Virus record (IMG/VR): IMGVR_UViG_3300025929_000013 | Location: 1-64,000 of that record | Direction: 5' to 3' (one strand) | DNA from: a virus | DNA length: 64,000 nucleotides | Part shown: one piece after another, positions 17,915 through 46,646 of the stretch | How positions within the stretch are numbered: the first letter of the stretch is position 1 | Layout: each line of letters opens with the position of its first letter | Program-made: the position numbers and the translations under genes | Notes under the pieces: generated by a model | What the model saw: only the letters and a program-made list of their open reading frames with translations | Database searches by the model: none | What the model was told of the DNA's origin: nothing

Positions 17915-19228
17915 ATGCCCACAAGCAACGACGTCAAGAAGGACACGAAGAAACTCATAGACGAGATCAGCCAGGCGATCGGCTGGCGCGTCGTCGACAT
18001 GACCAACGGCCATTACCAGGTCGTCAACCCGGACGGCGACTCTGTCACCACCAGCGGTACGCCCGGCCAGCAAAGCACCCTGCTCAGGTTCCGGGACGAC
18101 CTCAAAAAACATCTCGGCTGGGACGCGGCGAAAGAGAAGAGGCGGCGGCAGGCGGAGGCGAAGTTGCGCCTTGAGGCCGACAGGGCGAAGAACGACGCGG
18201 TGATGGCGAAGGCTGTCGCCGAGGCGAAAGAGCGCCACTGCGCAGAAATGGAACGCCTCAAGCAGACGCAACGCCCCGGCACGAAACTGCCCAACGGCGA
18301 GGTCGTCGACTACATCAGCAAACCGGTATTCTTCACCCGCATCGACGCGATCGCGGCATTGGAGACCAAGGGCAGGTGCGACTGCAACCTGCGCGCGCTG
18401 AGCGAGACCAACATCACCCGCCTGTTCGAGCCGATGCACGAGGGCGATTGGATGTACATGCCACACGGCCTGGACGTGTGCATCCACGGCAACTACGGCG
18501 ACGGCGCCCACCGTCTCGAAGCGCTCAAGCGGATGAGCGACGAAGAACTCATTGAGCTGTACGGCGAACCCGGCCTGTGGTTCAGGGTCACCTACGGTGT
18601 GCCGCCGGAAGTGCTCGACAACACCGACATGGGCAAGGCGCGCAGCCATGCCGACGTACTGATGCAGCACGGGTACAAGAGGAACCCGAAGGAGGTCGCC
18701 GCCGCGCTGAACATCCTGATCGCCTACGACGCGGGCACCCCCTGGCGACACTGGAGCCGCAAGGTCATCACCCACCGGCAGCGGCTTCGCGCTCTCAAGG
18801 GCGAGTATGCGGCGCTAGTCGCGCCCGGCAGCGAGAACACGATCATGACCGACGCGCTGAGGCTGCACAAAAGCAGGATGAAGATGACCCTGACCAGCGC
18901 CCTGGTCTTCTGCTTCCTGATCCAGCGCGAGGTGCCCTACCCGGTGTGGAATGCGTTCCTCACGCCGCTTCTTACGCTCAAGGACTTCGAGGACGACGAC
19001 CCGCGCGGCGCCCTCTACACCAACCTCATCAAGAAGGACCGCAAGCCGACCGAAGCGCGCCAGGGGATCCGAGAGCTCGGCATGGCGCTCAAGACCTGGA
19101 ACAAGTGGGCGACCGGGGAGCGCCAGGAGCTGGCGACGTTCAAGAAGACCGAGCCGATGCCGCGGATTTCAAAGATCACGCGCGAGATCCCGGCCCTCGC
19201 CAGCCTCAATACGCCGTTCAACGGCTAA
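17915..19228 (+). CDS. ParB/DGQHR-like phage protein
   Basis: 437 residues. The N-terminal 120 residues hold a charged coiled-coil-like segment (KEKRRRQAEAKLRLEADRAKN is split over about 80-105). The middle has the layout of ParB-like 'DGQHR' proteins: a helical segment ending EPMHEGDWMYM, then GDGAHRLEALKRM, then VTYGVPPEVLDNTDMGKARS. Those proteins use such domains to bind DNA or nucleotide; some are phage nucleases or repressors. The C-terminal half is helical and unknown. Stands alone between the HTH-like gene and a terminator. Confidence 0.55.
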   Translation: MPTSNDVKKDTKKLIDEISQAIGWRVVDMTNGHYQVVNPDGDSVTTSGTPGQQSTLLRFRDDLKKHLGWDAAKEKRRRQAEAKLRLEADRAKNDAVMAKAVAEAKERHCAEMERLKQTQRPGTKLPNGEVVDYISKPVFFTRIDAIAALETKGRCDCNLRALSETNITRLFEPMHEGDWMYMPHGLDVCIHGNYGDGAHRLEALKRMSDEELIELYGEPGLWFRVTYGVPPEVLDNTDMGKARSHADVLMQHGYKRNPKEVAAALNILIAYDAGTPWRHWSRKVITHRQRLRALKGEYAALVAPGSENTIMTDALRLHKSRMKMTLTSALVFCFLIQREVPYPVWNAFLTPLLTLKDFEDDDPRGALYTNLIKKDRKPTEARQGIRELGMALKTWNKWATGERQELATFKKTEPMPRISKITREIPALASLNTPFNG

Positions 19229-19242
19229 CGACCACCCGCACA

Positions 19243-19268
19243 GGCGCCCTGAATTTCGGGGCGCTTTG
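19243..19268 (+). terminator. rho-independent terminator
   Basis: Stem GCGCCC / GGGCGC with loop TGAATTTCG-type, then TTTGT, 15 bases after the stop. Confidence 0.75.
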
Positions 19269-19293
19269 TGCTGTCCGGACAAGGAGGAAAGGT

Positions 19294-20193
19294 ATGGATA
19301 AACAGCAGCAGCTTCTGAGTGAGCTCCCCGAGCAGCTGCGGGAGCCGACGCGGGCGGCGCTCTCCCGCCTGAGCAAGAGCTCGGTCCGGGTCTACGCGGG
19401 CGACATCCTGCACTGGCTCGGCTACTGCGCAGCGAAAAAGATCGAGCTGCTCACGCCGACCCGGCCTCAGGTCGACCTCTACTGCGCGGCGCTGTCGAAG
19501 GGCCTCAAACCGGCGACCGTCAACCGGCACATGTCCGCGATCTCCGCCTGGTTCTCGTACCTCGTCGAGTGCGAGATCGCCGAGCGCAACCCGTTCAAGG
19601 GCCCCAAGCGCCCGCGCGTGGACAAGACCACCTCCACGACCCCGTGGCTGAGCCGGGAGGAGTGCAAAAGGCTGCTGGAGGCGGCCGAGGCGCAAACCGG
19701 GCCCCAGGCGCAGCGCGACGCCGCGATCATGTGGCTGCTGGTGACCGAAGGCGTGCGTGTCGCGGAGGTCGCCGAGCTCATGCAGAGCAGCCTTCGCGTG
19801 ACCGGCGGCCAGCGTGTGATCCGCGTGCGCGGCAAGGGCAACGTCATGGAGGACCGGGCGCTGCCGGGCAGGCTCGCGGCGCAGCTCGACGCCTACCTCG
19901 CGGCGCACCCGCACACCGGCCACCTGTTCGTGACCAGCACGGGCAACAAGCTGAGCCCCAGCTACATCTCCAAGCTGGTCGCCCGGTTCGCCAACGCCGC
20001 CGGGCTGCCGAACCCGCAGCAGTACACCGCGCACTCGCTGCGGCACACCTCCGCCACCATCGCCAAAGCAGAGGGCGCCACGGAGGAGGAGATCAGCAAG
20101 GGGTTGGGTCACTCCAGCCTCGAAACGACCCGCGGATATCTGCACAATCCGGCGGATGACCCCGCGCACCGCGTCGAGCAGGCGCTGCGCTAA
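19294..20193 (+). CDS. tyrosine recombinase (XerC/D-like integrase)
   Basis: 299 residues from ATG 19294 with AAGGAGG upstream. The N-terminal SAM-like core-binding domain covers about residues 15-105. The catalytic domain has the full set: R155 in EGVRVAEV, K181 in VRGKGN, H247 and R250 in HSLRHTS, H273 in LGHSSLETT and nucleophile Y282. It joins DNA by site-specific strand exchange, as phage integrases and Xer dimer resolvases do. The length and sequence are XerC/D-like rather than phage-lambda-like. With a large serine recombinase also present at 32.7 kb, this enzyme may resolve genome multimers, excise, or belong to an older integration module. It has its own terminator upstream. Confidence 0.9.
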   Translation: MDKQQQLLSELPEQLREPTRAALSRLSKSSVRVYAGDILHWLGYCAAKKIELLTPTRPQVDLYCAALSKGLKPATVNRHMSAISAWFSYLVECEIAERNPFKGPKRPRVDKTTSTTPWLSREECKRLLEAAEAQTGPQAQRDAAIMWLLVTEGVRVAEVAELMQSSLRVTGGQRVIRVRGKGNVMEDRALPGRLAAQLDAYLAAHPHTGHLFVTSTGNKLSPSYISKLVARFANAAGLPNPQQYTAHSLRHTSATIAKAEGATEEEISKGLGHSSLETTRGYLHNPADDPAHRVEQALR

Positions 20194-22983: not shown

Positions 22984-23138
22984 GTTCCTGTGAATGGACA
23001 ACATGTTGGCTCCGCATACACGGAGGTGGCGGCCTTTCGGGGCCGAGATTCGCAACTCTGTGTTGTACGTGGGTTGCTCAGCGACAGGGCCTGGGTCTCC
23101 GGATCCGGGCCTTATCGCTTTTCCGAATGCGTGCAGCT

Positions 23139-23159
23139 CACCCGTTCGGCCTAGCGCGC
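23139..23159 (-). promoter_or_regulatory. recurrent motif, copy 2 (inverted relative to copy 3)
   Basis: The 21 bases here are the exact reverse complement of 24422-24442 (core GGCCGAACGGGTG preceded by GCGCGCTA). The inverted pair flanks the DUF7873 gene and the permuted tRNA genes. Confidence 0.5.
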
Positions 23160-23260
23160 CAAATCTTCTGGAGTTCGCCGTAGCGCCCCTGGTAGATCTG
23201 CATACGTCACCACGTACGCCGGTCGCCGGGGGCGTTTCGGCATTTCAGGAGGAAACCAGC

Positions 23261-23992
23261 ATGACCAGACTCAGCCAGATCATCGCGGTCGAGAGGGGCG
23301 CGAAGGGCAAGGCCCTGGCCCGGCTCACCGCCGCCCATCACGCCGTCCAGAAGGCGCCCCTGCTCTCCGGGCTCTCGCGCACCTACCAGCCCAAGGACGA
23401 GGACGGCGACACCCTGCCGTCAGAGTCCACGAAGGTGCAGCTCAAGGTCGAGCAGGCGATCGAGGGGATCGTCGAGGACCTCACCCGCCTGTTCGACGTG
23501 ACCGCGACCAAGGACTGGACCAACTGCGTCGCGCGGGCCGACGTGAAGGTCGGCGACACCGTCCTGATCGAGGGCGCGCCGGTGACCTACCTGCTGTTCC
23601 TGGAGAAGCAGCTGGTCGACCTGAACGTCTTCGTGCGCAAGCTGCCGGTACTCGACCCCGCCGAGTCCTGGAGCCACGACCCCACGAGCGACACGTGGAA
23701 GACCGAGCCGGTCCAGACGGTCAAGACCAAGAAGGTCCCGCGCAACCACGTCAAGGCCGAGGCCACCGACCGGCACCCGGCGCAGGTCGAGATCTACCAC
23801 GAGGACATCCAGGTCGGCACCTGGACGACGGTGAAGTTCTCCGGCGCGCTGCCGCAGGTGCGCGTCAACGAGCTGCTGCACCGTGTCGAGACGCTCCAGG
23901 CCGCGGTGAAGTTCGCCCGCGAGGAGGCGAACGGGACGGTGGTCACCGACCAGAAGCCCGGCGAAGTTGTTCTCGACTACCTCTTCAGCTAA
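23261..23992 (+). CDS. DUF7873 family protein
   Basis: 243 residues from ATG 23261 with AGGAGG upstream. I recognise the sequence layout of a conserved actinobacterial/actinophage family: N-terminal LSQIIAVERGAK, then KAPLLSGLSRTYQPKDEDG, RLFDVTATKDWTNC, LLFLEKQLVDL, PVLDPAESW, TKKVPRNHVKAEATDRHPAQ and a final GEVVLDYLF. The family has no known enzymatic role. It is probably cytoplasmic; no signal or metal motif. It stands alone between a long non-coding gap and the tRNA region. Confidence 0.8.
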   Translation: MTRLSQIIAVERGAKGKALARLTAAHHAVQKAPLLSGLSRTYQPKDEDGDTLPSESTKVQLKVEQAIEGIVEDLTRLFDVTATKDWTNCVARADVKVGDTVLIEGAPVTYLLFLEKQLVDLNVFVRKLPVLDPAESWSHDPTSDTWKTEPVQTVKTKKVPRNHVKAEATDRHPAQVEIYHEDIQVGTWTTVKFSGALPQVRVNELLHRVETLQAAVKFAREEANGTVVTDQKPGEVVLDYLFS

Positions 23993-26810: not shown

Positions 26811-29036
26811 ATGCCCATCATCAGCCCTGGAAATCAGGAGTCGAACGCCGACGGCGCCATCGAGCTTCGGATCGCCGCGGATATCGATGAGACGACAGGC
26901 TGCACCTTCTCCGCCACGGGCCTGCCCGACGGGCTCGAATTCGAACGCAAGAAGTTCGAGGATGACGAGGAGCACACCTGGCAGACCGGCCGCATCATCG
27001 GAACTCCCAAGCGCGCCGGGATTTACCAGGTCACGGTCACCGCGATCGACAAGGCCGGAACCAAGACGACCGCGTCCTTCGTGTGGACCGTCTGCGCCAT
27101 GCGGGCGTACAGATTCGCACTGGACCTAAGCGACCCGCAGATCACGGCCATGCAGCAGCACGCGGGCACCGCGCGGTGGGCCTACAACAAGGCGCTGGAA
27201 GCCAAGGTCAACGCCCACAGGGCGTACACCGAACGGCTCAAGGCCCTGCTCGCCTCTGGACTGACGCCACAGCAGGCGAAGGCCCAGATGAAAAAGGAGA
27301 GCGCGGCGCTCAAGGCGCAGACCGCGATCTGGGAGCACCACCGCCAGTGCCTGACCGCCATGAACCTGGGCAGGGCACTGCCCGCCAAAACACCGCGCGG
27401 ACCGCAGGAACTGATCGACGACCTCGCCGCGATCCGGGCGATGGTGCCCGACGGCGTCGACCCCGCGCTGCTCACCCTGGTGGGCAACTGGAAGGGACAG
27501 CCGCCCACGGCGCTGTGCTGGGCGCGCGACCGCCACGAGGCACGCCAGAAGTGGATTAAAACCCACCTCGTCATGGCGCGCCAGACCGTCACGCACCTCA
27601 AGCAGCAACTGTTCGACCTCGGCGACACGATCCCCAACATGATCGAGAACCTGGCGAACTGGCGCAACACACGCGACCTTCCCAAGGAAGAGGGCGGCTC
27701 GCCGTGGTGGCAGGAGGTCAGCTCCTACGTGTTCTCCGGCGGCATGGGCCGCGCGGACGCCGCGTGGAGCAACTGGCTCAAGTCCCTCAGCGGACAGCGC
27801 GCCGGTAAAGCCGTCGGATACCCGCGGTTCAAGAAGCGCGGCCAGTGCGCCGACTCGTTCCCGCTCTTCCACGACGTCACCAATCCATCGATACGCATCG
27901 AGGGATACCGGCACCTGCGCCTGCCGAATATCGGAGAGGTGCGCGTCCACAACTCCGGGCACCGCTCCGGTACACGCAACCGCGTCACCGCGACCAACGC
28001 GAAGGGCGTCAAGCGCACCGTCAGCGGCCAGAGCAAGGGCCGCCTCGGTTCGACCAAGCGCCTGGTGCGCATGATCGAGCGCGGCGACGCGATCGTGCAG
28101 TCCGTGACCGTCGTGCGCGGCGGACACCGCTGGTATGCCAATGTCCTGGTCAAGCTCACCCCTGAGGCGATGCGCCAGCGTGAAATGGTGGCGCGCGCCC
28201 ATCAGAAGGTCTCCAAGAAGCGCGCCCAGGGCCGCGGGAACGTCGGCGTCGAGTGGGGTGTGCGCACCCTGGCCACCCTCTCGAACGGGGAATCGTTCGC
28301 GAACCCCAAGCCGGGCAAGAAGAACCAGCGACGCCTGCGCGTCGCGTCCCAGAAGGTCAGCCGCAAACCGCACAAGCGCGGCCAGCCGATCTCCGCGAAC
28401 CGCGCGGCGGCGATCCGCCAGCTCGGCAGGGTCCACCACGAGATCGCCGAGACGCGCAAGGGCAACCACCACCAGATCTCCGCCGCGATCTCGCTCGGCT
28501 ACCGCGGCGTCGCCGTACGGGGCCTGGACGTGAAGTCCATGACCAAGTCAGCGAAGGGCACGGTCGAAAAGCCCGGCAAGCACGTGAAGGTCAAGTCGAC
28601 CTTCAACCGCGCGGCCCTGGACGCGGCGCCGGGCATGCTGCAAAACCAGATCAGCTACAAGACAACCCAGTACGGCGCGAAATTCGGGGTCGCCCCGAAG
28701 GACCTGCCGTCCAGCCAAACCTGCTCAGCGTGTGGGTGGCGAGATCCAAGCATCCCCCTGACGCAGATGACCTTCCGGTGCGGAAACGTAGAGTGCGGCA
28801 AGAAAATCGACCGCGAGGTCAACGCCGCACGCAACATCCGCAACTCAGTATTTCCCGTGGCCTCAGACAGTGGGGACACGTTAAACGCCTGCGTAGATGG
28901 CATAGGACCCCCGGGCAGCCGAGGGCAGCCGTCGCCAAAACAGGAAGACCCCGAGCCCCATCCCCCACCGGAGGATGGACCCGCGGAGGGTCATTCCGGG
29001 GAAGCGATTCCCCGGCGTTCTCACACCCCGGGCTGA
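26811..29036 (+). CDS. TnpB/Cas12-like protein, Ig-domain fusion, RuvC residues altered
   Basis: 741 residues. Residues 17-94 look like a 'putative Ig' (He_PIG) fold: FSATGLPDGLEF, GTPKRAGIYQVTVTA. From M97 (RAYRFALDLSD) the chain is TnpB/IS605-OrfB-like, with KAVGYPRFKKRG, the SRK...RR...LGRVHHEI helix and a C-terminal zinc ribbon (C638, C641, C657, C662). In active TnpB/Cas12 nucleases the three RuvC acidic residues sit in GVDxG, VVEDLN and DRDVNAA; here they read GVEWG (E481), VAVRGLD (R570) and DREVNAA (E669). The glutamate-to-arginine change in particular should abolish cleavage, so an RNA-guided DNA binder is more likely than a nuclease. A CRISPR-like array starts 45 bases after the stop. 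No tnpA or transposon ends are seen. Confidence 0.8.
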   Translation: MPIISPGNQESNADGAIELRIAADIDETTGCTFSATGLPDGLEFERKKFEDDEEHTWQTGRIIGTPKRAGIYQVTVTAIDKAGTKTTASFVWTVCAMRAYRFALDLSDPQITAMQQHAGTARWAYNKALEAKVNAHRAYTERLKALLASGLTPQQAKAQMKKESAALKAQTAIWEHHRQCLTAMNLGRALPAKTPRGPQELIDDLAAIRAMVPDGVDPALLTLVGNWKGQPPTALCWARDRHEARQKWIKTHLVMARQTVTHLKQQLFDLGDTIPNMIENLANWRNTRDLPKEEGGSPWWQEVSSYVFSGGMGRADAAWSNWLKSLSGQRAGKAVGYPRFKKRGQCADSFPLFHDVTNPSIRIEGYRHLRLPNIGEVRVHNSGHRSGTRNRVTATNAKGVKRTVSGQSKGRLGSTKRLVRMIERGDAIVQSVTVVRGGHRWYANVLVKLTPEAMRQREMVARAHQKVSKKRAQGRGNVGVEWGVRTLATLSNGESFANPKPGKKNQRRLRVASQKVSRKPHKRGQPISANRAAAIRQLGRVHHEIAETRKGNHHQISAAISLGYRGVAVRGLDVKSMTKSAKGTVEKPGKHVKVKSTFNRAALDAAPGMLQNQISYKTTQYGAKFGVAPKDLPSSQTCSACGWRDPSIPLTQMTFRCGNVECGKKIDREVNAARNIRNSVFPVASDSGDTLNACVDGIGPPGSRGQPSPKQEDPEPHPPPEDGPAEGHSGEAIPRRSHTPG

Positions 29037-29047
29037 TTGAAAAATCA
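28996..29047 (+). ncRNA. omega-RNA-like hairpins at the 3' end of the TnpB-like gene
   Basis: CCGGGGAA-GCGA-TTCCCCGG (28996-29015, GNRA tetraloop, 8 bp) is followed by TGATT-GAAA-AATCA (29034-29047). TnpB guide RNAs (omega RNAs) are normally encoded across the end of tnpB and its downstream flank, so this is where a scaffold would be expected. A TTGAAA (29037-29042) with CATACG 17 bases on could also be a weak promoter for the array. Both are inferences. Confidence 0.4.
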
Positions 29048-29080
29048 ACAGTGGATGCGCATACGCGCAGGTCGCACAGT

Positions 29081-30529
29081 GTGCGCCCCGCGGGCGTGTG
29101 GAATGGTCGCACGCTCCACCGGTGGTGAGGGACGTGAGTACGTGCGCCCCGCGGGCGTGTGGAATGGTCCGCACCGTTCCTCGACCACGCATGGGTCGCG
29201 CCGTGCGCCCCGCGGGCGTGTGGAATGGTCGTAGTGCAGTACGGCGAAACAGCCCGCTAGAGCGTGCGCCCCGCGGGCGTGTGGAGCGGTCGACGGCGTC
29301 AGTGCGGTGGCATACATAGTGGCGCTGCGCCCCGCGGACGCGTGAGACGGTCATCGGTAAGCTGACTTCCCAGAGCGCGTGAAATGGGCGCCCCGCGGAG
29401 CGTGGAACGGTCGCAAGGATGCTTACTCGGCTCCTACTGAAGGCCGTGTGCCTTGCGGGCGCGTGAGACGGTCCATCCACCCAGATGACGAGCGAGCAGA
29501 AGCCCAGGTGCGTGGAATGGTTCGGGGACTCCAATTGGTAGGAGCCAACAAGGGTTTCCCCCGCGGGCGCGTGAGACGGTCGTGACGGCAGTCGTTATGG
29601 CACAGAGTCCGCATAGGCGCGTGGGATGGTCTCAGACTCACGTATTACAGCCAGGCCGCGCAGCGGAGTGCGCCCCGCGCACACGTGAGGCGGTTCTGAC
29701 GCAGGGCGTTGAGTCACCCCGTGCACACAGAGAACGGTCCGCCTGGTGGGCGGTGGCATGAGTTGGGAAATTATGTGCCCCGCAGATGCGTGAGACGGTC
29801 GGGTCGAATGTCCATGGTTGTGGCGCAGGTCGCACAGGGTGCGCCCCGCGAGCGCGTGGGACGGTCGTGAAAATACCAGCAGGGCTTTGACCGAGGGCAG
29901 TGCGCCCCGCGGGCGCGAGGAATGGTCGACCCGTCTGGGCTGCTGTCCGTGGACAGCAGCGTGCAGCCCGCGGGCGCGTGGGTCGGTCTGAGTCAGGAGG
30001 CCACGATGGACGCTGTCGGCGGTGCGCCCCGCGGGCACGTGGGTCGGTCGTTTGAGTCCGAAGGAACCGCCCGATGAACGTCGTGCGCCCCGCGAGCGCG
30101 TGGGTCGGTCGGATCTACATGGACCAACCGTACAGACGGAGCGGTGCGCCCCGTGGGCGCGTGGAACGGTCGTGGCCCGGTCGCGTAGGCGGCGCAGGTC
30201 GCACAGGGTGCGCCCCGCGGGCGCGAGAAATGGTCGGTTACGTACGACAGGTCACCCATCAACAGCAGGTGCGCCCCGCGGGCGCGAGAAATGGTCGTGG
30301 TGTAGGGTGCCCGCACTCGAACACTGCGAGTGCACCCCGCGGGCGCGAGAAATGGTCGGAAGAGCTCTCGGTTGATACTGTCCCCCTGCGTCTGCGCACC
30401 TCGGGTATGCGCGGGACGGTCAGAGTGCCAGTGAAAGTTCTCGTCAACGTTCTGATGCTCCCCGCGGGCATGTGGAACGGTCCAGGTATGCTGCTGGTCA
30501 GATACACCCCGTGCACACCGGGAACGGTC
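29081..30529 (+). CRISPR. CRISPR-like array, ordered part (about 25 repeats)
   Basis: 28-base repeats that start GTGCGCCCCGCGGGCG and end TGGAATGGTC, mostly every 61 bases with 33-base spacers. Repeats 1-3 (29081, 29142, 29203) are identical; from repeat 4 (29264) on they drift, as expected at the leader-distal end of a CRISPR array. Other starts: 29325, 29385, 29446, 29554, 29668, 29773, 29839, 29900, 29961, 30022, 30083, 30144, 30208, 30269, 30330, 30394, 30455. Length, period, the GTGC-CCCCGCG start and the GGTC end recall actinobacterial type I-E repeats. No cas3/cascade or cas1/cas2 genes lie in the window. Spacers differ from each other, except for a shared end before repeats 1, 14 and 20. 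Confidence 0.85.
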
Positions 30530-30557
30530 TGGTGCATTACCAGTCAAGCAGTACGCC

Positions 30558-31329
30558 GGTGCGCGCAGAAAACGGTCGCCCTGGAAAGCTGCGGTGTGCG
30601 CGGAACGGTCGGCCCTGCTCTCTCAGTCGCGCAGAACGGTCAGCCTGGTACATGTACCACCGCGCTAGGGAACGGTCGGGAGCAGCGCGTGCCCGGGAAC
30701 GGTCCATGTCCATGATGTCGGTGAGATGAAGGACGGTCAGGTCCTATCGGGCGGGCTGAGAACGGTCGGAAAAGAATGTACGGGCGCAGCGGTGGATGAT
30801 GCTCCTCGCTCATCCACCGGCGAACGGTCTCCCCCGAAGTGTGCGGTCTACATGCCGCGGATGCGCAGAACGGTCCGCTTCCCGAGAGAAAGCGCAGAAC
30901 GGTCAAGGCTGGTTAGCTCCGGGCGCGAGAACGGTCTGGGCTCAGAATAAGGGTGCGCAGAACGGTCCAGTGTGAATGACGGTCAAGTGTCTGCCAGGGG
31001 CCAGCATGTGAAGAACGGTCATACGCCTGAAGAACGGTCATACGCCTTTGAGTACGAACGCATCCCAGGGGCGACGGTCGATGACCATGGCCTGCGGTGA
31101 ACGGTCCGGAGAGACCCCGGTGCCGAGCGGTCCAAGAAGTGGTGAACGGTCCAGGTCTGTGTCGGGCGAACGGTCCTTGAGCCATTCGAACCCGGCGCCG
31201 GGAGAACGGTCATCCAAGTATGCCGAGCACGGTCTGACAGTCACAGCTACGCGCGTAGAACGGCCTAGTTGTCGGCGGGGCAAGAGAACGGTCCAGGTCT
31301 CCCGAGATCATCAAGGCGCTACAATGGTC
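30558..31329 (+). CRISPR. CRISPR-like array, reduced part (8-base GAACGGTC units)
   Basis: The array continues but only the repeat's 3' end is kept: about 25 copies of (G)AACGGTC, often as GCGCAGAACGGTC or GAGAACGGTC, at variable spacing of about 17-62 bases (for example ending at 30577, 30610, 30641, 30677, 30704, 30767, 30936, 31020, 31039, 31106, 31151, 31211, 31293). The hairpin half of the repeat is lost. The kept part corresponds in position to the 5' handle of a type I-E crRNA. No ORF here looks real. A 9-bp hairpin GGTGGATGA / TCATCCACC lies at 30791-30818. Confidence 0.7.
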
Positions 31330-31395: not shown

Positions 31396-31470
31396 TGCGG
31401 GGTAGCGCAGCTCGGTAGCGCGCTGGGCTCATATCCCAGAGGTCGCTCGGTTCAAATCCGGCCCCCGCTA
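31396..31470 (+). tRNA. tRNA-Met(CAT), initiator-like
   Basis: Complete cloverleaf: acceptor TGCGGGG / CCCCGCT with an unpaired first base pair (T1-T72), D-arm GCGC/GCGC, anticodon arm CTGGG-CTCATAT-CCCAG, T-loop TTCAAAT, discriminator A; CCA not encoded. Three G-C pairs next to the anticodon loop and a mismatch at 1-72 are hallmarks of bacterial initiator tRNA, so this may be a phage tRNA-fMet. An elongator or tRNA-Ile2 role cannot be excluded. Confidence 0.85.
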
Positions 31471-31478
31471 CAGCAACA

Positions 31479-31514
31479 GCCCCCTCCTATCACCGGGTAG
31501 GAGGGGGCTTCTCT
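31479..31514 (+). terminator. rho-independent terminator
   Basis: Perfect 11-bp stem GCCCCCTCCTA / TAGGAGGGGGC, loop TCACCGGG, then TTCTCT. It lies right behind the tRNA and just before the convergent minus-strand gene. Confidence 0.9.
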
Positions 31515-32360: not shown

Positions 32361-32843
32361 ATGCCAAGCCTTCCACCGGAGTCCACGCAAGACCGGCTCG
32401 TCCGCCGTATAAAGTCCGCCACTGGCGTTGACTGCACGATCTTCGACGGGCGCACCGTGGCACTTGACGAGCGTGAGCTCTACCATCTCCTGTCCGTGCT
32501 GGCCTGTGATGCCGAAGATCCCAAGAGCGCCGCCCTACTGGCAAAACTGCTGCCCATGCCACAAGCTACAGGTCAACGGCCTGGGGATGTGTGTGTGTTT
32601 GACACCACATCGCGAACGCGGTGTACTCTCAAACACGTACATCCGCGATCTAGGGAGAGCGTGTGGCATGCCCCCTGTAGATACACCGCTAAGAAGACCA
32701 GCTCGATGCAAGCGCGCCATCATCTACGTACGTGTATCCAAGGCACGCGAGGTGATGTACAGCCCCGAGCAGCAGATCATGCGCTGCGAGCAGTACGCCA
32801 AGCAGCACAACATCCAGATCGTCGACATCGTGCGGGACCTTAA
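32361..32843 (+). pseudogene. possible small ORF, cut off by the integrase promoter
   Basis: The frame starts MPSLPPESTQDRLVRRI and its first about 75 residues look protein-like (helical, acidic). From about 32590 it runs through the integrase promoter and then 175 bases of the integrase gene in another frame, where its composition changes. It could be a short gene damaged when the integrase module arrived, or chance. There is no ribosome binding site. Confidence 0.35.
32593..32634 (+). promoter_or_regulatory. integrase promoter with nested palindromic operator
   Basis: TTGACA (32597-32602), 17 bases, TGTACT (32620-32625). It is covered by nested inverted repeats: GTGTTTGA (32593-32600) / TCAAACAC (32627-32634), ACACC / GGTGT and CGCG-AA-CGCG. 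This looks like a repressor operator for the recombinase gene. Confidence 0.6.
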
Positions 32844-34356
32844 CCTCAGCGGCCGGACCTTCGAGAAGCGCAAGGTCATCGAGATCATCGAGCGCATCCA
32901 GAACGGTGAGGCCGAGATCGTCCTGGTGTGGAAGTACAGCCGCTTCGGACGATCGAAACTGAAGAACGCGGTGCACATCGTCCTGGTGGAAAAGGCTGGC
33001 GGCCAAGTGATCAGTGCCACCGAGGGTGGCAATGAGAAGACCAACGTCGGACGCCTGAACCGCAACATCATCATGTCTGTGGACGAGTTCTACTCCGGCG
33101 TGATGGGCGACACGTGGAAGGACACCCACGAGCGGCGTCGCAACAGCGGTCTCCCGCACACCGGTAAACCCCGTCTGGGGTACATGCGCTGTCCGAAGTG
33201 CGAACGAGACGAGGAAAACCCGACCAAGTACAAACCCTGCGAGTGCGGCGGCGTTTTCGTCCCCGATCCTGAGCGCGCGTGGGCGGTCAAGGAGGTATAC
33301 ACGCGTTTCACCGAAGGTGAGGGGCTACGCAAGGTCATTGCCGATGTAGCCTCCCGCGGAGTCACCACGACTGTTGACGGGGCGCCTCTTACGTGGGGGC
33401 ACTGGACCACCGCGCTCGACTCCGGATTCGCGGCCGGTTGGCTGCGCGCAAAGAGCGAGGAGGCCAAGGAGGAGAACCCCAATGGGCGGCGCATCGACGA
33501 TTACGACGTCTGGGTTAAAGGTAAGCACGATGCGCTGATCTCCGAGGAAATCTGGCAAAAATACAGGAAGCGCCGCATGGCGCGTGAGCGACTCCCCCCG
33601 AAGGCTCGCGAGCCCAAGCACTCCCTAAGTGGTTTCATCCGGTGTGGCGGTCGCAATTCCGATGGGGAACTATGCCTGCGCGTGATGACTGCGGCGAGGG
33701 GTGGCCGTAAAGGCGAGAAATACGTAGTTTTTCGGTGTCCCGTCCACGCCGACACCGGCGCATGTACCGGAAGCTCGATCGGCCTGATCACGACCGAGAA
33801 GATCGTACGCCGGTGGATCCGAGACAACGCGAAGGATGACGGTCGACGCCAGCGTGCACTCGACGAGATGCTTACGTCCGAACAAAACGCAGGCGAGCTT
33901 AGGCATGCACGCGCCCGCGTGGCGCAGCTAGATGAGAAGCGAACGAAACTCGCAAGCGGTTGGGCCTCTGGGCTTCTGAAAGATGATCTCTACCGAACGC
34001 TCTCGGAAGAGCTCGACGTCGAACTTGATGTGGCGCATGCCACTGTGGCGAAGTTGGAAAGGGCAACCACCCGCATCGAGCTGGGCCCAGAGGTTTTCCT
34101 GCCCATCGCGGAGCAATGGGATGGCCTTCCACCCGCAGCTAAAAACGAAGCTCTGCAACATGTGGTCGACCACATTATTTCGATTCCGATGCCCGGACGC
34201 GCCCGTACTATGGCACGCGTTGTCGGACTTGGTGAGGCGTATGACTATGCATTGCCATCCCGCGGTGTATCGCGTGTCCGGGCGCGGCGCAATGCCTCTC
34301 TCGCCAAGACGCACCAGAACGCGTCCCAATCCGGAGTGACGCCAGGCGAGGAGTAG
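32668..34356 (+). CDS. large serine recombinase (integrase)
   Basis: 562 residues from ATG 32668 with AGGGAGAG 8 bases upstream; the frame extends further upstream only through the promoter. Resolvase domain at about residues 15-150 with nucleophile S24 (IIYVRVS), QIMRCEQYA and WKYSRFGRS. Then the 'recombinase' domain (about 190-300: GKPRLGYMRCPKC, an extra Cys cluster CPKCERDEEN...CECGG), the zinc ribbon domain (about 310-370: GFIRCGG...CLRV...FRCPVHADTGACTG), a coiled coil (about 400-450) and a basic C-terminal tail. Such enzymes integrate phage DNA between attP and attB. attP should lie beside the gene, most likely in the 340-base non-coding stretch after it, but I cannot identify it. Cys/His at about 175-192 is an unusual insertion. 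Confidence 0.9.
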   Translation: MPPVDTPLRRPARCKRAIIYVRVSKAREVMYSPEQQIMRCEQYAKQHNIQIVDIVRDLNLSGRTFEKRKVIEIIERIQNGEAEIVLVWKYSRFGRSKLKNAVHIVLVEKAGGQVISATEGGNEKTNVGRLNRNIIMSVDEFYSGVMGDTWKDTHERRRNSGLPHTGKPRLGYMRCPKCERDEENPTKYKPCECGGVFVPDPERAWAVKEVYTRFTEGEGLRKVIADVASRGVTTTVDGAPLTWGHWTTALDSGFAAGWLRAKSEEAKEENPNGRRIDDYDVWVKGKHDALISEEIWQKYRKRRMARERLPPKAREPKHSLSGFIRCGGRNSDGELCLRVMTAARGGRKGEKYVVFRCPVHADTGACTGSSIGLITTEKIVRRWIRDNAKDDGRRQRALDEMLTSEQNAGELRHARARVAQLDEKRTKLASGWASGLLKDDLYRTLSEELDVELDVAHATVAKLERATTRIELGPEVFLPIAEQWDGLPPAAKNEALQHVVDHIISIPMPGRARTMARVVGLGEAYDYALPSRGVSRVRARRNASLAKTHQNASQSGVTPGEE

Positions 34357-44748: not shown

Positions 44749-46224
44749 TTACTCGCTCTCCTCCGGCAGGACCTCGGCGTCCAGGATGCCGAGCTGCTCG
44801 TAGACGGTCGGCACGGGGGGCGGCGGGGCGATCGCGGGGGGCGGGGATCCGAACATGCGCGAGAGGAATCCGGTCTCCGCGCCGCTGGCCGCGCCGCGCT
44901 GGCTGACCTTGATCGTGAAGCCCGAGGTGTTCATGTCGCTGCGCAGCTTCAGCAGCCTGCTGATATTCGCGCGGCCCCGCACCGTGCGGGAGTGGTCGCC
45001 CCCGCCCAGCAGCTCCTCCTCCCAGCGTTCGCGCAGGTAGTCGGCGGTTTCGTGCTCCAGGATCAGCCGCAGCAGGGCGTCGAGCTGCTCCTCGGTGGAC
45101 AGGTCGACCGGCACGTCGTACGCGCAGGCCGCCTTGGGTTCGTACTTGGGGCACACGTCTTTGACGTAGCAGGTGTCGCAGGCTCTTAGGGTGCCGCCGG
45201 TGTTGCGCAGCAGGGGCAGTTCGCGGATCTCGCGGGCGCCGTCCTCGTCGGTGCGCTCGTGCGCGAACTTCTCGACGCCGATGCCGGGAAGCGGCTCGAC
45301 GGGGCGCTGGCGGGGGCCTGTAGTAACTATCGGGTTCCGCGCCCCAGGGGGGTCGATCTCAACATCGTCCGGGTCGTTTTCCGTGTTCTGCCCGCAAGGC
45401 GTTTCGGGGGTGATGGTTACTTTGTTGACGGCTTCGAGCTGCTTGGTCCATGCCCACAGGGATACCTTCAGTACCTCTGCGGTGTCGTCCTCCAGCACGG
45501 CCTGGGCGTCGAAACCGGCCATCTCAATCTCGGTTCGGTGCCGCCGACGCGCGACGTCCTTCTGCCGGGAGTGGTAGCGGCGCAGCTCCCCGCGGCTCCA
45601 CACGACGGTGTCGCCGTATTGCGAGGGGCTGAGCCATGAGGTGGAGTGCACGCTGTACCAGGGGATGGCGGCCATCACCGACGGCTTGGTCATCGCCAGT
45701 CCGAAGAGCTTGACCCCGTCGCGCGCGAGGGAGACCAGGGTGGGGGTGAGGTCTCTGCCTTCGAGTTCGACGGCGGCCAGGGCGATGTTGCGGTGCCGCT
45801 CGGCCATGAGCATCAGCTCGGCGAGCCCGTCCTGGGGGTGCCAGACGGCGACCGCCTTGTCCCCCGCCAGATCCCTCAGGGTGTCGCGGTGGCTCCTAAG
45901 AAGCGCAGGGCCCAGGGCGAGGGCGTCCATCTCCAGGACGTAGTCGACGGCGCCGGTGTTGTAGCCCACGAAGTCCTCGTAGCGCTCCACCAGTTCGCGC
46001 AGCTCGCTCTCGCCGGGGGGCGTGGGGGAGTTGTTGAGGCTGTAGGCGCCGGAGTCCAGCAGGATATTCTGGCCCGCGTCGAAATGCTCTGCGATGAGCC
46101 ACGGCTTGGTGAATTTGACCTTGCGCGCCAGCCCGATGTAGCTCATCGCGACGTCGGGGATTTCCTGGTCGGCCAATAGCCGCCGCCAGGCGGAGACCTC
46201 AGCGCCCGCGAACCAGAGCCTCAT
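44749..46224 (-). CDS. DpdA/TGT-like protein with C-terminal Cys domain
   Basis: 491 residues from the ATG at 46224. The N-terminal 260 residues (MRLWFAGAEVSAWRRLL, ILLDSGAYSLNN, VAVWHPQDGLAEL, KLFGLAMTKPSVM) resemble phage proteins annotated as queuine/7-deazaguanine transglycosylase-like (DpdA-like TIM barrels). Such enzymes exchange guanine for a deazaguanine in DNA or tRNA. Residues about 360-400 hold CDTCYVKDVCPKYEPKAAC, a four-Cys metal site seen in actinophage packaging-region proteins, and the end is a Pro-rich tail. I see no deazaguanine synthesis genes here, so the enzymatic role is tentative. Confidence 0.5.
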   Translation of the reverse strand: MRLWFAGAEVSAWRRLLADQEIPDVAMSYIGLARKVKFTKPWLIAEHFDAGQNILLDSGAYSLNNSPTPPGESELRELVERYEDFVGYNTGAVDYVLEMDALALGPALLRSHRDTLRDLAGDKAVAVWHPQDGLAELMLMAERHRNIALAAVELEGRDLTPTLVSLARDGVKLFGLAMTKPSVMAAIPWYSVHSTSWLSPSQYGDTVVWSRGELRRYHSRQKDVARRRHRTEIEMAGFDAQAVLEDDTAEVLKVSLWAWTKQLEAVNKVTITPETPCGQNTENDPDDVEIDPPGARNPIVTTGPRQRPVEPLPGIGVEKFAHERTDEDGAREIRELPLLRNTGGTLRACDTCYVKDVCPKYEPKAACAYDVPVDLSTEEQLDALLRLILEHETADYLRERWEEELLGGGDHSRTVRGRANISRLLKLRSDMNTSGFTIKVSQRGAASGAETGFLSRMFGSPPPAIAPPPPVPTVYEQLGILDAEVLPEESE

Positions 46225-46226
46225 GA

Positions 46227-46646
46227 TCAGTCTCCGGTGGAGGTGCCCAGGATCCGCCACGGCGTGGCTGGCGGCGCCGCGGTGATCCAGAAATTCGTCG
46301 CGATCGTCGGGTTACGCAGCAGCGCCTCCCACGCAGTGACCAGGGCCGTGTTGGAGAGGCTGGTGGCGACTTCGTAGTTCACCCGCGCCTGCTGCGGCGC
46401 AGGAGGGCGCCCCAGCTCGAAGTCGAGGCACCGTTCGAACTCCTCGTTCCATTTCTCCTTGTGTTCGGCCGCCTCGAACGCCTCCGGGTCGGCCAGCGCG
46501 ACGTCGAAGATCGCGGCCAGTTTGCGGGCGACGCAGTCGCAGGCGCAGGTCGCCTCGGTGTACGGGGAGTCGCAGCAGGCGCAGACATCGCCGCAGGTCT
46601 CGACGCCGCGCGCGCAGTCGCAGTCTTCCAGGGTCGTCGCGGTCAT
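46227..46646 (-). CDS. Cys-rich N-terminus protein
   Basis: Not recognised. 139 residues; the first 40 hold nine cysteines (CDCARGVETCGDVCACC...), likely one or two metal clusters. The rest is helical. It ends 2 bases before the DpdA-like gene and may act with it. Confidence 0.7.
   Translation of the reverse strand: MTATTLEDCDCARGVETCGDVCACCDSPYTEATCACDCVARKLAAIFDVALADPEAFEAAEHKEKWNEEFERCLDFELGRPPAPQQARVNYEVATSLSNTALVTAWEALLRNPTIATNFWITAAPPATPWRILGTSTGD

What the first reader, a model, noticed from the sequence alone, without database searches (positions are those of the whole stretch)
26811..31329. Catalytically altered TnpB/Cas12-like protein coupled to a CRISPR-like array on a phage
Seen: a TnpB-like protein with zinc ribbon directly followed by about 50 repeat units, no transposase, no adaptation genes. 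The RuvC positions read E481, R570 and E669 instead of D, E and D. Known: TnpB/Cas12 need all three for cleavage; dead TnpB-derived repressors (TldR) and the non-cleaving Cas12m exist. Inference: an RNA-guided, non-cutting repressor encoded by the phage, using a dedicated array to silence host or rival-phage genes.
Basis: partly seen in the sequence, partly recalled or inferred. Interest (0 to 1): 0.95.

Follow-up and report, generated by a model that had tools for sequence, protein, structure and literature searches.

The report
Non-cutting phage Cas12n with trimmed guides
A virus of Streptomyces-like bacteria carries an RNA-guided protein of the Cas12n family whose DNA-cutting site has been replaced by a different, conserved set of residues, together with about 50 guide units whose repeats have worn down to the bare 8 letters needed to load a guide; it looks like a natural 'bind but do not cut' CRISPR used by a phage.

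Summary
ORF 26811-29036 (741 aa) is a V-U4/Cas12n-family effector (PADLOC Cas12u4 E=4e-147; closest solved structure RdCas12n). Its RuvC triad reads E481-R570-E669 where 41 of 58 aligned relatives have D-E-D. It is followed by a tracrRNA-like region and 50 repeat units. The record has no Cas1 and no Y1 transposase.

New here: (1) A second, divergent phage (L111, 46% local identity) has the same E-R-E triad with a regular 61-nt array plus Cas1 and Cas2 genes. E-R-E is therefore an inherited, retained state. The pair groups with 12 relatives, none of which keeps D-E-D. (2) Repeat and anti-repeat covary across 25 arrays (0 of 2000 permutations as good). (3) In the window's distal array only the last 8 nt (GAACGGTC) survive: the anti-repeat-pairing stretch plus a 3-nt tail. 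An unrelated phage array (L014) with a D-E-D effector shows the same trimming to 9 nt. This is what selection for guide function without adaptation would leave.

Best reading: a binding-only Cas12n CRISPR, descended from an adaptation-competent system, interfering with other mobile elements. Cleavage loss and binding are inferred. No guide target was found, so the host- or rival-silencing role is untested.

The parts
26811..29036 (+). Cas12n/V-U4-family effector, 741 aa, non-canonical RuvC triad E-R-E
   Evidence: Cas12u4 E=4.4e-147; RdCas12n 9j09 E=7e-56
26823..27092 (+). N-terminal He_PIG (Ig-like) domain, aa 5-94, absent from all compared relatives; an AGGGGG-type ribosome-binding site precedes ATG 26811, none is apparent before the in-frame ATG at 27099
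28251..28253 (+). codon E481 (RuvC-I, normally D)
28518..28520 (+). codon R570 (RuvC-II, normally E)
28815..28817 (+). codon E669 (RuvC-III, normally D)
28632..28838 (+). TNB zinc ribbon with four Cys (C638, C641, C657, C662), intact
28870..29030 (+). tracrRNA-like region overlapping the 3' end of the gene (conserved GAAGAC motif, hairpins), as in relatives; boundaries approximate
28996..29015 (+). hairpin CCGGGGAAGCGATTCCCCGG conserved in position across the family
29016..29022 (+). anti-repeat CGTTCTC, pairs with GAGAACG of the array units
29065..29079 (+). leader end GCGCAGGTCGCACAG (also inside the array at 29823-29837 and 30192-30206)
29081..30482 (+). proximal array, units 1-24: about 28-nt repeat GTGCGCCCCGCGGGCGYGTGGAAYGGTC, mostly 61-nt period
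30483..31329 (+). distal array, units 25-50: repeat reduced to GAACGGTC, 17-62-nt spacing
31396..31471 (+). tRNA-Met (CAT) directly after the array, followed by a GC-rich inverted repeat at about 31480-31507

Best explanation
It is a phage-borne CRISPR of the V-U4/Cas12n kind whose effector has become a binding-only protein. The 3' end of the gene gives a tracrRNA whose anti-repeat (CGTTCTC) pairs with the end of each crRNA repeat (GAGAACG). The loaded protein binds matching DNA and, lacking a metal-binding RuvC site, blocks it (transcription or replication roadblock) instead of cutting. Its ancestor was adaptation-competent, as its sister in phage L111 with Cas1 and Cas2 still appears to be. 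This phage lost the adaptation genes, after which the part of the repeat needed only for spacer integration decayed and only the guide-loading part was kept. The most likely use is interference with other phages or mobile elements during co-infection or lysogeny. Shown by sequence: family, triad, the sister with the same triad, covariation, selective retention of the 8-nt core, absence of Cas1. Inferred: loss of cleavage, DNA binding, blocking, and the identity of targets.
For: Family: (AcCas12n species locus L059, 45-47% identical). Triad confirmed by alignment and shared with L111, a separate 202-kb phage contig; E-R-E pair SH-aLRT 100, and all 14 rows of the containing clade lack D-E-D. L111 has Cas1 (PF01867) and Cas2 (PF09707, CT1978 type) after a regular 8-unit array. 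Repeat:anti-repeat pairing across 25 arrays: mean 7.68 bp against 5.63 permuted, 0 of 2000 permutations as high. Distal units: 1.07-1.92 bits per position over the last 8 nt, near zero beyond about -14; the core pairs with the anti-repeat (mean 4.7 consecutive bp against 0.95 at random sites). Same trimming in L014. Known precedents for binding-only interference: Cas12m, including H-D-D and N-D-D triads (PMC11013384) and phage TldR with guides as short as 6 nt (PMC13418256).
Against: No target was found for any guide. No expression data. L014 has a D-E-D effector with the same trimmed array, so trimming is not a sign of a dead effector. A D-to-E change at one metal-binding position can leave some activity in some enzymes, so inactivity rests mainly on R570. 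Conservation around R570 is not above the protein average. The computed fold of the tracr region alone is not unusually stable (z -0.8).
Confidence: 0.66

Rival explanations
1. A TldR-like, RNA-guided regulator of host genes: the phage uses a fixed set of guides to silence defined host genes.
For: Phage TldRs exist and silence host flagellin (PMC13418256). The clade contains array-less D-E-H relatives with one conserved guide. No adaptation genes here.
Against: About 50 different guides, none with a credible match in 394 Streptomyces genomes; the sister phage has an array and Cas1-Cas2, which fits changing targets.
Confidence: 0.15
2. A decaying remnant: a captured Cas12n locus that is dead in protein and array.
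For: All three catalytic residues changed, irregular spacing, mutated repeats, no adaptation genes, no targets.
Against: The 741-aa frame and zinc ribbon are intact. E-R-E is shared with a 46%-identical protein in another phage. Units 25-50 keep the 8-nt core while the rest of the repeat is lost, which neutral decay would not do. The anti-repeat matches the core.
Confidence: 0.12
3. An altered but still active nuclease, or one that cuts RNA or single-stranded DNA, using E-R-E.
For: E-R-E is conserved in two divergent proteins, so the residues probably do something.
Against: Arginine cannot take the metal-binding role of the RuvC-II glutamate (established chemistry); the neighbouring clade has also lost the third acid (H, T, R); natural Cas12m variants with altered triads bind without cutting.
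Confidence: 0.05
4. The array serves the host's type I-E system as a decoy or donor of crRNAs (RNA-based anti-CRISPR).
For: Proximal repeats have the 28 + 33 nt, 61-nt format of type I-E arrays.
Against: Distal units lack the I-E-like repeat and keep exactly the part that pairs with this locus's own tracrRNA; Cas12n arrays of this family generally have the 61-nt format.
Confidence: 0.02

Closest known systems
Cas12n (V-U4, C2c9), e.g. AcCas12n of Actinomadura craniellae and RdCas12n (PDB 9j09)
   Same: Sequence family, zinc ribbon, tracrRNA inside the 3' part of the gene transcript, adjacent array with 61-nt period, Actinobacterial range
   Different: Known Cas12n cut dsDNA with an intact site; here E-R-E. 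Adds an Ig-like domain. Carried by a phage. Half the array has only 8-nt repeats
Cas12m (V-U1, subtype V-M)
   Same: Expected mode: binding without cutting; natural non-canonical triads (H-D-D, N-D-D)
   Different: Different Cas12 family; tracrRNA-less; mostly on plasmids; acidic residues kept at RuvC-II and III
TldR (TnpB-like nuclease-dead repressors)
   Same: TnpB lineage, nuclease-dead, phage-encoded
   Different: TldR uses a single dedicated guide for a host gene; here a 50-unit array and split tracr/cr RNAs
Virus-borne mini-CRISPR arrays
   Same: Virus-encoded guides in a virus lacking cas adaptation genes
   Different: Those borrow the host effector; here the effector is encoded alongside

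Membership tests
Cas12n / V-U4 | Sequence match to the family | tested here: met
   PADLOC Cas12u4 E=4.4e-147; best PDB sequence hit RdCas12n E=7e-56; groups within the Actinobacterial Cas12n tree
Cas12n / V-U4 | CRISPR array directly downstream with 61-nt period | tested here: met
   Proximal half met; distal half deviates to about 8-nt repeats
Cas12n / V-U4 | tracrRNA with anti-repeat at the 3' end of the gene | tested here: met
   Position conserved and pairing covaries; transcription not tested
Cas12n / V-U4 | Intact RuvC D-E-D nuclease site | tested here: not met
   E-R-E; hence filed as a non-canonical, presumably non-cutting variant, not as a Cas12n nuclease
Cas12n / V-U4 | 5'-AAN PAM | not testable with these tools
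   No protospacers found
TldR | Inactive RuvC in a TnpB lineage | tested here: met
   Triad replaced; inactivity itself inferred
TldR | Single adjacent guide RNA targeting a host gene | tested here: not met
   50-unit array; no host target found
Cas12m | Sequence match to Cas12m / Cas12u1 | tested here: not met
   Cas12u1 not among the listed matches of the window protein, Cas12u4 far best
IS200/IS605 TnpB transposon | TnpA (Y1) in the element | tested here: not met
   No Y1_Tnp in the record
Complete adaptive CRISPR | Cas1 and Cas2 | tested here: not met
   Cas1 absent from the window phage by profile, Cas2 by tblastn only; both present in sister phage L111

The most novel reading that the evidence does not exclude
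A distinct phage-specific class of CRISPR: E-R-E Cas12n effectors that bind without cutting, with an arginine possibly taking the place of the catalytic metals between two glutamates as a salt-bridge lock. They can be adaptation-competent (L111 with its own Cas1-Cas2). In phages that lose adaptation the array is compacted by selection to crRNA-sized units with 8-9-nt repeats, a general minimal-array format also reached independently in phage L014.
Probability: 0.45. Interest if true: 0.9.

Novelty: new variant of a known kind. Interest (0 to 1): 0.8.

Why it matters
It would be a natural CRISPRi carried by a phage within the Cas12 family thought to be closest to TnpB. It would show that nuclease loss happened again in Cas12n, independently of Cas12m, Cas12k and TldR. 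The eroded arrays show by natural selection which repeat letters are needed to load a guide (8-9 nt) and which only serve spacer acquisition; that can be tested directly and is useful for compact multi-guide arrays. The L111 locus makes testable whether a non-cutting effector can support adaptive immunity for a virus.

Tried and rejected
Searches with the window protein alone missed its relatives (peptide patterns from unconserved parts); alignments fixed this. Exact repeat search in viral contigs: none. Guide targets: own genome at chance level; phages and plasmids only E of about 0.6 or worse; 394 Streptomyces genomes gave many weak hits that cluster on GC-rich repeat parts and span repeat borders, so they were not taken as targets; other Cas12n phages, nothing convincing; L111 spacers, none convincing. 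A codon pattern for VEWGVRT found no further E-R-E member. A search of 395 actinomycete genomes with the two E-R-E proteins at E<=1e-80 was too strict to mean anything. Rejected: that the array trimming follows from the dead effector (L014 is D-E-D); that the system came with the phage backbone (phage L015 has a related terminase, 64%, and polymerase, 47%, but a D-E-D Cas12n from another part of the tree). The conserved guide of the D-E-H relatives first looked as if it had a nearby target in G780, which turned out to be a second copy of the RNA end.

Full report
What was checked. The window is bases 1-64000 of a 108,847-bp virus record. Its polymerase is about 48% identical to those of BRock-like Streptomyces phages, and it carries tail, endolysin, UvsX-like and integrase genes. 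The ORF at 26811-29036 is intact. It holds a He_PIG Ig-like domain (aa 5-94), the OrfB N-terminal helix-turn-helix, an OrfB_IS605 core and a TNB zinc ribbon.

Family. PADLOC's Cas12u4 (V-U4) model is the best match, E=4e-147. The best sequence match among solved structures is 9j09, the RdCas12n-sgRNA-DNA complex. The genome scan recovered the Actinomadura craniellae Cas12n locus (L059) at 45-47% identity, followed 21 nt after the stop by a 61-nt-period array. A review describes Cas12n as cutting dsDNA, with a tracrRNA located inside its mRNA and an AAN PAM (PMC11641405).

Active site. Both a pairwise alignment with RdCas12n and family alignments place E481, R570 and E669 exactly where D, E and D stand. 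Among 58 aligned proteins 41 are D-E-D, 10 D-E-H, 2 D-E-A, one each D-E-T, D-E-R and D-P-D, and two E-R-E. The second E-R-E protein is L111 from a separate 202-kb phage contig, 46% identical over the best segment. The two form a clade with support 100, next to 12 proteins that all lack the third acid, support 98. So loss of the canonical site is old in this lineage, and E-R-E has been kept through large divergence. Local identity around E669 is among the highest in the protein, around E481 above average, around R570 below average. The idea that R570 sits as a salt bridge between the two glutamates is inference.

The sister locus. L111 reads Cas12n(E-R-E), tracr region, eight regular units (GTCTGGCCCGCGAGCGCACGGGAAGATCT, 61-62-nt spacing), then Cas1 (PF01867) and Cas2 (PF09707, the CT1978 type of I-E systems). 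One neighbouring gene is shared with the window phage, 32% over 136 aa. A presumably non-cutting effector next to its own adaptation genes on a phage is unusual; I found no report of it in the library searched, which lacks most subscription papers.

The RNA parts. In the family the tracr region has a conserved GAAGAC motif and a hairpin followed directly by the anti-repeat. For 25 loci the anti-repeat of each locus pairs with its own repeat over 7.68 bp on average, against 5.63 when partners are permuted, and none of 2000 permutations reached the observed value. The pairs change together: CGCTCCC/GGGAGCG in L059, CATCCCCT/AGGGGATG in L030, ACACCCCT/AGGGGTGT in L014, CGTTCTC/GAGAACG in the window. 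Anti-repeat and repeat stretches were transcribed by hand, so stretch choice is a possible bias; the permutation used the same stretches.

The array. There are 50 units. In units 1-24 the 28-nt repeat is recognisable. In units 25-50 only GAACGGTC remains at 1.07-1.92 bits per position, while positions before about -14 carry almost none. This core is the anti-repeat partner (GAGAACG) plus GTC. Spacing drops from 61 to a median near 31 nt, the size of a short repeat stub plus a guide of about 22 nt. L014, a 155-kb phage contig with a D-E-D Cas12n, shows the same: 23 units against a shuffle mean of 1.07, maximum 5, with the distal half keeping only GGGTGTTCC. Trimming to the guide-loading core thus arose in two distant phage loci, in neither of which Cas1 was found. 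The simplest account: without adaptation, selection no longer keeps the part of the repeat that serves integration. Age of the units as the cause of the gradient is inference. A 19-nt tandem duplication at 31020-31047 shows that units can also multiply locally.

Targets. None credible: own genome at chance level, phages, plasmids, 394 Streptomyces genomes, other Cas12n phages. L111 spacers also lack clear matches.

Judgement. Membership: a Cas12n-family protein by sequence, array and tracrRNA, but the nuclease feature was tested and not met, so it is filed as a non-canonical, presumably non-cutting variant. Works like: Cas12m-type binding interference (PMC11013384), less like TldR (PMC13418256). 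Cutting, binding and silencing were not tested.

Noticed in passing
L003 5839, L004 5828, L025 6819, L027 6902, L028 6876, L029 7007: Array-less D-E-H relatives in Streptomyces and Kitasatospora end in GGGACGATC-like scaffolds followed by nearly the same 16-nt guide (GTGTTCTGG-AGATCG) and then diverge: possible single-guide, TldR-like repressors. No target identified; one apparent target was a second RNA-end copy.
   Followed up: partly
L014 7440-8520: Phage contig with D-E-D Cas12n and an array trimmed distally to 9-nt repeats, the same format as in the window.
   Followed up: yes
L111 5965-9644: Phage contig with E-R-E Cas12n, regular array, Cas1 and Cas2.
   Followed up: yes
L181 5080-7175: Phage contig with a 61-nt array and Cas1e-Cas2e but no Cas12n found in the record; it encodes a protein starting like the window's MTRLSQIIAVE protein within ORF 22994-23992.
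   Followed up: partly
29065-29079, 29823-29837, 30192-30206: The leader end GCGCAGGTCGCACAG recurs twice inside the array just before a repeat, as if array starts had been duplicated or fused.
   Followed up: no
26823-27092: Ig-like (He_PIG) domain in frame at the N-terminus of the effector, absent from relatives and with no other copy in the phage; such domains are usual on virion surfaces.
   Followed up: partly
31396-31507: tRNA-Met (CAT), the only tRNA in the window, directly follows the array, then a GC-rich inverted repeat: possible 3' processing of the array transcript.
   Followed up: no
18577-20193 and 32428-34356: Both a tyrosine-type and a large serine-type integrase match on the same phage.
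   Followed up: no
44749-46260 (-): Queuine tRNA-ribosyltransferase-like gene (phrog_887), possibly DNA or tRNA base modification.
   Followed up: no
L052, L057 (Embleya hyalina): Two further Cas12n-like proteins with A at RuvC-III in another part of the tree: a second possible loss of the site.
   Followed up: no
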